Shown piece after piece: positions 34,025-34,155 of a DNA stretch of 64,000 bases. Each line of letters begins with the position of its first letter. Position 1 is the first letter of the stretch. The stretch is from IMG/VR virus record IMGVR_UViG_3300050821_003663, positions 1 through 64,000 of that record. The stretch is one strand, 5' to 3'. The position numbers and the translations under genes are program-made. Origin of the DNA: a virus. Below the pieces are notes generated by a model. The model worked only from the letters and a program-made list of their open reading frames with translations, was not told where the DNA came from and did not search any database.

Positions 34025-34155
34025 CGGGATAGTGAAGTTTACGGATACTTCCCTTTGGCGGACGAGGTCGCAGGTTCGAGCCCTGCCATTCGCTTCGGCG
34101 GATGTAGCTCAGTGGTAGAGCGCGTAAATCTCCGTAGGCGCCTGTTCTTCCCGAT
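34025..34155 (+). ncRNA. tRNA-like module B, YrlA-type RNA next to Ro60
   Basis: T-arm GCAGG-TTCGAGC-CCTGC, acceptor strand CATTCGC, a TTCG tetraloop, acceptor strand GCGGATG (all seven pairs form), TA, then D-arm GCTC-AGTGGTA-GAGC. The flanks pair through ACG/CGT and GGCG/CGCC instead of making an anticodon loop. TACGGA (34041) in the neighbouring hairpin loop can pair with TCCGTA (34132). TCGGGA (34025) and TCCCGA (34150) could close the whole RNA. This fits a Y RNA with a tRNA-mimic domain and a Ro60-binding stem. Confidence 0.7.

What the first reader, a model, noticed from the sequence alone, without database searches (positions are those of the whole stretch)
34058..34143. Second permuted tRNA-like module with UUCG-capped acceptor stem next to Ro60
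T-arm, seven-pair acceptor stem closed by TTCG, and a textbook D-arm occur in permuted order. The remaining flanks pair without an anticodon loop. A stable tetraloop on the acceptor end is a designed dead end for translation.
Basis: seen in the sequence. Interest (0 to 1): 0.82.

Follow-up and report, generated by a model that had tools for sequence, protein, structure and literature searches.

The report
Phage Y RNA carrying permuted tRNA
Next to its Ro60 gene this phage encodes a small RNA that carries a re-ordered copy of a tRNA, a known kind of molecule (YrlA), but here apparently with the anticodon arm kept, a variant that recurs in many phages and some bacteria and that the public RNA-family model does not include.

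Summary
The unit is 34024-34154, the last of four Y-RNA-like hairpins between a promoter (33669-33697) and a terminator (34163-34188), just upstream of Ro60 (34215-35567). It matches Rfam YrlA (34.8 bits, below the cut-off of 69), a known tRNA mimic already reported to be modified by DusA and TruB.

Two points go further. First, phage Ro60 loci share a Y-RNA frame: 110 units in 46 of 61 sources, against 2 hits on the reverse strand. Second, many units keep an anticodon arm directly before the variable loop, so the tRNA is whole but cut between positions 26 and 27. An RNA-only pattern for that arm hit 67 viral records, of which 64 encode Ro60. U33 is invariant in 77 of 77 units (25 of 25 in the fair sample). 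In the window unit this arm has one mismatch (loop CUUUGGC), is not favoured by energy, and rests on comparison; re-ordered, ARAGORN calls the unit tRNA-Gln(UUG).

Best reading: the effector domain of a Ro60-tethered Y RNA. A role as anticodon-loop bait is possible, not shown.

The parts
33669..33697 (+). promoter-like site TTGACA-17-TAGGAT, likely start of the Y-RNA transcript
   Evidence: only promoter-like site found in 33600-34260, 0.5 expected in shuffles; consensus match only
33718..33820 (+). Y-RNA-like unit 1 (103 nt)
   Evidence: UAGUGA..GGUUACUUC / GUUCU frame with 8-bp closing stem
33825..33941 (+). Y-RNA-like unit 2 (117 nt), with a T-arm-like hairpin but no D-arm found by the parser
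   Evidence: frame and 8-bp closing stem; T-arm without D-arm
33951..34013 (+). Y-RNA-like unit 3 (63 nt, short type)
   Evidence: frame and 6-bp closing stem
34024..34154 (+). Y-RNA unit 4, YrlA type: the whole RNA of which the finding is a slice
   Evidence: frame, 6-bp closing stem; YrlA 34.8 bits; model R1, built without the window, 53.1 bits
34024..34037 (+). closing stem 5' strand UCGGGA and Ro60-site-like strand UAGUGAAG
   Evidence: covariation of the motif in relatives
34038..34045 (+). inner stem 2, 5' strand, pairs with 34131-34138
   Evidence: pair probability 0.85-0.95
34048..34064 (+). anticodon-arm equivalent (27-43): CUUCC CUUUGGC GGACG
   Evidence: position and length by comparison with relatives; 4 of 5 pairs; this register has low probability in folding (0.00-0.07)
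34065..34069 (+). variable loop AGGUC (44-48)
   Evidence: sequence; AGGUC was part of the search pattern for the 77 relatives
34070..34086 (+). T-arm GCAGG UUCGAGC CCUGC
   Evidence: sequence; pair probability 0.78-0.88
34087..34104 (+). acceptor stem closed by UUCG, 7 of 7 pairs
   Evidence: sequence; pair probability 0.84-0.89
34105..34122 (+). U8-A9, D-arm GCUC AGUGGUA GAGC and G26
   Evidence: sequence; pair probability 0.86
34131..34154 (+). stem 2 3' strand, Ro60-site-like strand GCGCCUGUUCU and closing stem 3' strand UCCCGA
34163..34188 (+). intrinsic terminator GAGAGCCAGACUUCGGUCUGGCUCUU + U-rich tail
34215..35567 (+). Ro60 (TROVE + vWA) protein, 450 aa
   Evidence: PF05731 E 1.5e-9 and PF25045 E 4e-6 (27.3 bits, just under its cut-off of 27.7); solved TROVE proteins 9l5y and 9kop E about 2e-21

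Best explanation
34058-34143 is a slice of a YrlA-type Y RNA (34024-34154) encoded by a phage beside its own Ro60 protein. Shown by sequence and comparison: a two-stem Y frame shared by phage Ro60 loci, and inside it a tRNA-like domain in permuted order with the acceptor end closed by UUCG. Strongly suggested by comparison: the domain is a whole tRNA body including an anticodon arm, opened between positions 26 and 27 where the Y stem enters, rather than the three-arm domain of the Salmonella YrlA. Inferred: the outer stems bind the phage Ro60; four Y RNAs are cut from one transcript; the tRNA-like end binds a host protein that recognises tRNAs and so holds it next to the Ro60 ring, as Y RNA tethers PNPase in the RYPER complex, steering RNA decay or repair during infection. 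I put about 0.9 on the identity, 0.8 on the anticodon arm as a class feature, and about 0.5 on tethering as the mechanism.
For: Rfam YrlA 34.8 bits on the unit. Ro60 directly downstream. Shared frame: 112 hits on the Ro60 strand, 2 on the other strand, 1 in three sets of shuffles over 594,291 bases; 110 units of at most 180 nt in 46 of 61 sources. Motif covariation with the last two bases left free: A with U 13 of 13, G with C 39 of 43; stem 2 pairs in 47 of 56 units against 15.2 with shuffled partners. tRNA body: in 77 permuted units the acceptor is 90.4% paired against 45.7% shuffled, U8-A9 77 of 77. Anticodon arm: all 77 have 5 pairs and U33; 25 of 25 U33 in units whose loops do not fit the first pattern. 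RNA-only pattern led to Ro60 in 64 of 67 viral records and to Ro60 in 25 of 30 bacterial or archaeal loci with a D-arm. Re-ordered, 23 of 30 units are called tRNAs by ARAGORN, the window unit as tRNA-Gln(ttg); in natural order 1 of 43.
Against: The Rfam score is below the gathering cut-off, and no match to RF02553 in eight related loci reached it. In the window unit the anticodon arm has a U28-C42 mismatch and its register has probability 0.00-0.07; folding prefers a neighbouring hairpin that uses the variable loop. Energy z is only -0.30. No expression, Ro60 binding or partner protein was tested. 15 of 61 sources had no unit by the strict finder. Listeria phage P100, whose relative has highly transcribed RNAs near an Rsr homologue, did not show this type of unit. 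The frame finder itself requires the closing stem and the R-Y match, so those two features cannot be counted as evidence.
Confidence: 0.85

Rival explanations
1. Anticodon-loop bait: the Ro60-bound permuted tRNAs present anticodon loops to enzymes that act there (host anticodon nucleases of phage defence, or the enzymes that make t6A37 and m1G37) and hold or sense them; arrays with different loops would cover different enzymes.
For: The anticodon arm is kept under selection (U33 77 of 77; inner stem pairs covary, 4 pair types). Positions 36-37 are U-A (53) or G-G (19) in 72 of 77, the contexts of t6A37 and m1G37 in ordinary tRNAs (rule recalled; 52 of the 77 fit pattern 1, which asks for U36-A37; in the other 25 G-G is 19). 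Anticodons vary (25 types). Competitive inhibition of an anticodon nuclease was proposed for the Salmonella YrlA (PMC7790460, passages).
Against: No nuclease or binding test. Class A units in the same loci lack the arm. Bacterial and archaeal chromosomes carry it too, so it is not a phage-only counter-defence.
Confidence: 0.25
2. A true permuted tRNA gene whose transcript is circularised and processed to a working tRNA-Gln(UUG), as in some algae and archaea.
For: Re-ordered it passes ARAGORN as tRNA-Gln(ttg). A few relatives have CCA right after the acceptor strand (L001, L007, L057; 1 of 77).
Against: UUCG tetraloop instead of CCA and leader; most caps are 2-9 nt; the Y frame; link to Ro60 in 64 of 67 records. 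The phage already has a tRNA-Gln(ttg) at 32094.
Confidence: 0.04
3. Remnant of tandem tRNA genes: the 3' half of one and the 5' half of the next, with no function.
For: It lies in a dense tRNA array, and junctions of real tandem tRNAs score up to 42 bits with the same model. This may well be the evolutionary origin.
Against: Acceptor strands pair 7 of 7 across a 4-nt cap, unlike the junctions (alignments); covariation across 77 units; same frame and link to Ro60 across phages, bacteria and archaea.
Confidence: 0.04
4. Standard YrlA topology in which 41-43 (ACG) pairs with CGU after G26, so that no anticodon arm exists in this particular unit.
For: Three pairs ACG/CGU are possible and are what the Rfam alignment uses. 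Class A units of this type exist in the same loci, e.g. L005, L026 first unit, L039 second unit.
Against: Its pairs have probability 0.00 and the structure is 2.9 kcal/mol weaker than the one with the anticodon arm. Model R1 aligns the unit end to end with an anticodon arm.
Confidence: 0.12

Closest known systems
YrlA bacterial Y RNA (Rfam RF02553; Salmonella YrlA, PDB 6CU1 as cited in PMC8394870)
   Same: permuted tRNA-like domain with T, acceptor and D arms, no free CCA end, outer stem for Ro60, gene beside Ro60
   Different: below the Rfam cut-off; outer frame diverged; an anticodon arm precedes the variable loop in most relatives found here and probably in this unit, whereas the Rfam consensus runs straight into the Y stem and the review describes only D, T and acceptor arms
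Rsr-Y RNA-PNPase complex (RYPER) of Deinococcus
   Same: Ro60 protein and Y RNA encoded together; modular RNA with one end for Ro60 and one for a partner
   Different: partner protein here unknown; phage-encoded; four RNAs in one array
Circularly permuted tRNA genes of algae and archaea (mentioned in PMC10085705, passages; details recalled)
   Same: 3' part before 5' part, acceptor strands joined by a short spacer
   Different: no CCA or leader in the cap, embedded in a Y-RNA stem, linked to Ro60
Highly transcribed RNAs beside the Rsr homologue of Listeria phage CKA15 (PMC12282133, passages)
   Same: phage Ro60-like gene, non-coding RNAs close by and near tRNA genes, proposed by the authors to be Y RNAs
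   Different: in the related phage P100 no unit with this frame or a permuted tRNA was found

Membership tests
YrlA (RF02553) | permuted T, acceptor and D arms | tested here: met
   coordinates; pair probabilities 0.78-0.89; covariation in relatives
YrlA (RF02553) | score at or above Rfam gathering cut-off (69 bits) | tested here: not met
   34.8 bits; relatives 31-45 bits. It works like a YrlA but is not in the Rfam family as drawn
YrlA (RF02553) | anticodon stem runs into the Y stem, no anticodon loop | tested here: inconclusive
   class A fold -35.1, class B -38.0 kcal/mol, neither is the best fold; relatives with the hairpin are common
YrlA (RF02553) | gene adjacent to Ro60 | tested here: met
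   TROVE domain protein 34215-35567
Y RNA | 5' and 3' ends pair and form a conserved Ro60 site | tested here: met
   closing stem and covarying internal motif across phage Ro60 loci; that the motif is the Ro60 site is inferred
Y RNA | bound by Ro60 in cells | not testable with these tools
   needs pull-down
Y RNA | expressed small RNA | not testable with these tools
   promoter and terminator matches only
functional permuted tRNA gene | CCA or processing signals in the cap | tested here: not met
   cap is UUCG; 1 of 77 relatives starts NCCA

The most novel reading that the evidence does not exclude
A widespread, unnamed class of Y RNAs in phages, bacteria and some archaea carries a complete tRNA, opened between positions 26 and 27 and closed at the acceptor end, with an anticodon loop kept to tRNA rules, held on Ro60 as bait or sensor for enzymes that act on anticodon loops (anticodon nucleases or the t6A37/m1G37 enzymes).
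Probability: 0.22. Interest if true: 0.85.

Novelty: new variant of a known kind. Interest (0 to 1): 0.62.

Why it matters
What the tRNA mimicry of YrlA is for is, as far as the papers read here say, unsettled. Units that keep an anticodon arm point to proteins that read anticodon loops, and they give natural pairs (class A without the arm, class B with it, sometimes in one locus) for a direct test. They also show that phage Ro60 genes come with arrays of Y RNAs, in cultured phages too, none annotated as such in the six stretches read; in Caulobacter phage CcrColossus an annotated tRNA-Gln lies inside one such unit.

Tried and rejected
Energy as evidence: rejected, z -0.30. Rfam or R1 score alone: rejected as proof, because tandem tRNA junctions score too. 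Nine-base hairpin loops seen (20 units) were listed: at least 7 of the 20 rows are the 5-pair, 7-base-loop arms read with one pair fewer, so I did not treat them as a class of their own. Link to tRNA repair in this phage: RtcB not found; the T4 RNA ligase family search is uninformative, since nothing rang in the controls either. Listeria phage P100 as a test case for expression: its Ro60-like gp165 (E 5e-7) is preceded by short hairpins of another sequence and no permuted tRNA. Alignment A1 put the anticodon arms of two sub-types out of register and was not used for counting; A2 uses 28 of 77 units, chosen for caps of at most 8 nt, at least 6 acceptor pairs and diversity, so acceptor counts lean upward; one search uses all 77, though there the D-arm position was chosen partly by acceptor pairing. 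Papers that matter most (Chen 2014, Wang 2018, Sim and Wolin 2018, Sim 2020) are not held, so I cannot say whether the anticodon arm was noted before; searches of held papers for it: also 8, 12, 23, 82, 83.

Full report
What is there. The window is part of a 103,677-base virus record. Between tRNA-Arg (ending 33666) and a Ro60 gene (TROVE and vWA domains, 34215-35567) lie about 550 non-coding bases with one promoter-like site, 33669-33697, and one forward terminator, 34163-34188. The finding lies in the last third of that stretch. The T-arm, the seven-pair acceptor stem capped by UUCG and the D-arm are all present in the order T, acceptor, D, and folding of the exact unit recovers them. Rfam places 34062-34127 in YrlA, the Y-RNA-like family with a tRNA-like domain, at 34.8 bits against a cut-off of 69.

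The unit is longer than the finding. Reading the flanks of the closest Ro60 relative (L001, 61% protein identity; sequence) showed a repeated frame: a closing stem, U-R-G-Y-G, a second stem followed by UACUUC, an interior of variable size, the second stem's partner, GUUCY, and the closing stem's partner. A finder for this frame gave 112 hits on the Ro60 strand, 2 on the other strand and 1 in three sets of shuffled sequence over 594,291 bases. Of 61 sources (window, 54 IMG/VR loci, six named phage loci), 46 have at least one unit of at most 180 nt and 15 have none; there are 110 units, 81 ending within 1,500 bases upstream of the Ro60 match start, 10 further upstream and 19 downstream. Because the finder demands the closing stem and the R-Y match, I repeated the count with the last two bases of the motif free: A goes with U in 13 of 13 and G with C in 39 of 43 units, and the second stem, which is never demanded, is present in 47 of 56 units against a mean of 15.2 with shuffled partners. 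The window has four units: 33718-33820, 33825-33941, 33951-34013 and 34024-34154. The finding is the interior of the fourth.

Anticodon arm. In many relatives the 17 bases directly before the variable loop form a 5-pair stem with a 7-base loop such as CUGUUAA, CUUUUAA or CUUCUAA, that is, an anticodon arm in the exact place it has in a tRNA. Among 99 distinct units, 28 have a perfect 4-5 pair hairpin with a 7-base loop after UAC, against 6.5 expected; loop position 2 is U in 22 and position 6 is A in 22 of the 28. When the tRNA parts are put back in normal order, ARAGORN of 30 units tRNAs (18 with a named amino acid, 5 without), the window unit as tRNA-Gln(ttg); in natural order it of 43. The domain is thus a tRNA opened between positions 26 and 27. 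A second type, class A, has instead the anticodon stem paired with the bases after position 26, as in the Rfam model; examples are L005, L026 first unit and L039 second unit.

Independent test. A pattern for the arm and variable loop alone (TACTTCNNNTNNTAANNGAGAGGTC), with no protein in it, hit 67 viral stretches; 63 have a D-arm downstream, so are permuted. The whole records behind all 67 were searched for TROVE: 64 have it, 48 of 50 and 16 of 17; the misses are a 4.3-kb fragment, one 64.6-kb record, and one hit without a T-arm. The control rang in 1 of 14 genomes. All 77 have U33 and five stem pairs, 76 a purine at 37, 72 A38. Since the first pattern itself fixes U33 and U36-A37-A38, the 25 units that do not fit it are the fairer sample: U33 25 of 25, positions 36-37 G-G in 19, C-A in 3, and one each of A-G, G-U and U-A. 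Over all 77 the acceptor stem is 90.4% paired against 45.7% with shuffled partners, with up to six pair types per position, so the structure and not the sequence is kept (the D-arm position was chosen partly by acceptor pairing). An alignment of 28 of the 77, without the window, has 99.8% of cells paired against 78.7% shuffled and a covariation score of 0.606 against 0.156, and at most 0.09 when slid. A model from it scores the window unit at 53.1 bits, first in the window; the next match, a junction of two ordinary tRNA genes, has 42.0.

Outside phages. The first pattern in one-genome-per-species contigs gave 41 hits; 30 have a D-arm by the pattern used, of which one (L224) looks doubtful by eye, and 25 of these 30 have a Ro60 in the fetched locus of at most 8 kb (27 of 41 counting L191 and L201). 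They include Bradyrhizobium, Acetivibrio, Planctomycetes, Actinomycetes and the archaeal contig L212. In eight such loci (seven of these and the phage locus L025) no match to RF02553 reached its cut-off (31-45 bits).

Limits for this unit. In the window unit the arm is CUUCC-CUUUGGC-GGACG with a U-C mismatch at 28-42; relatives L007, L023 and L036 have the same U-C apposition. Thermodynamics does not favour the arm's register (0.00-0.07) but a neighbouring hairpin over the same bases; the class A alternative is weaker still (-35.1 against -38.0 kcal/mol). So the arm in this unit is an inference from its relatives.

Function. A review states that YrlA resembles the D, T and acceptor arms of tRNA, is a substrate of DusA and TruB, and with Rsr and PNPase forms RYPER (PMC8394870, passages). 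[quoted passage not shown] In Listeria phage CKA15 an Rsr-like protein is found in purified particles and strongly transcribed RNAs nearby were proposed, without proof, to be Y RNAs (PMC12282133, passages). From the anatomy the tether model is the most likely: Ro60 holds the outer stems and the tRNA-like end recruits a tRNA-binding host protein. An anticodon loop kept to tRNA rules is more than an elbow mimic needs and makes a loop-reading partner plausible. No step of this is shown here.

Novelty. A phage YrlA beside Ro60 is not new in kind: one paper read here says that Y RNAs were identified by computation in bacteria and mycobacteriophages (citing Chen 2014). The variant with the anticodon arm and the arrays of up to six units were not seen in my searches of held papers; the main papers could not be read.

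Noticed in passing
window 33230-33343: Another permuted tRNA-like hairpin, YrlA 38.5 bits over the whole model, inside the tRNA array; stem GGGGGAUUCGCGG/CCGCGAUUAUCCCCC (13 pairs by eye) but none of the UGGUG/GUUCC frame.
   Followed up: partly
L057 4122-4290 (Caulobacter phage CcrColossus): An annotated tRNA-Gln (4128-4195) lies inside a Y-RNA-like unit and is probably a misread part of it.
   Followed up: partly
L001, L007, L057 units; one of 77: A few caps begin with NCCA right after the acceptor strand, a possible trace of descent from tandem tRNA genes.
   Followed up: no
units: Positions 36-37 are U-A or G-G in 72 of 77 (U-A largely by the search pattern); A36 occurs once. This matches the contexts of t6A37 and m1G37 in tRNAs.
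   Followed up: partly
L229 40073-40624, Listeria phage P100: ROOL RNA (86 bits, below its cut-off of 99.1) about 1 kb upstream of the Ro60-like gp165, with three short similar hairpins just upstream of gp165.
   Followed up: no
window 29461-36838: Dense tRNA array, 28 genes by ARAGORN, with the Ro60 gene and an HNH endonuclease gene (32469-33008) inside it.
   Followed up: no
window 35568-35799: Unassigned stretch between Ro60 and the next tRNA with inverted repeats seen by eye.
   Followed up: no
Prochlorococcus contigs L187, L200, L207, L213, L219, L222: Hits of the arm pattern without a D-arm downstream and without Ro60 in the locus; look like tRNA 3'-half remnants.
   Followed up: no
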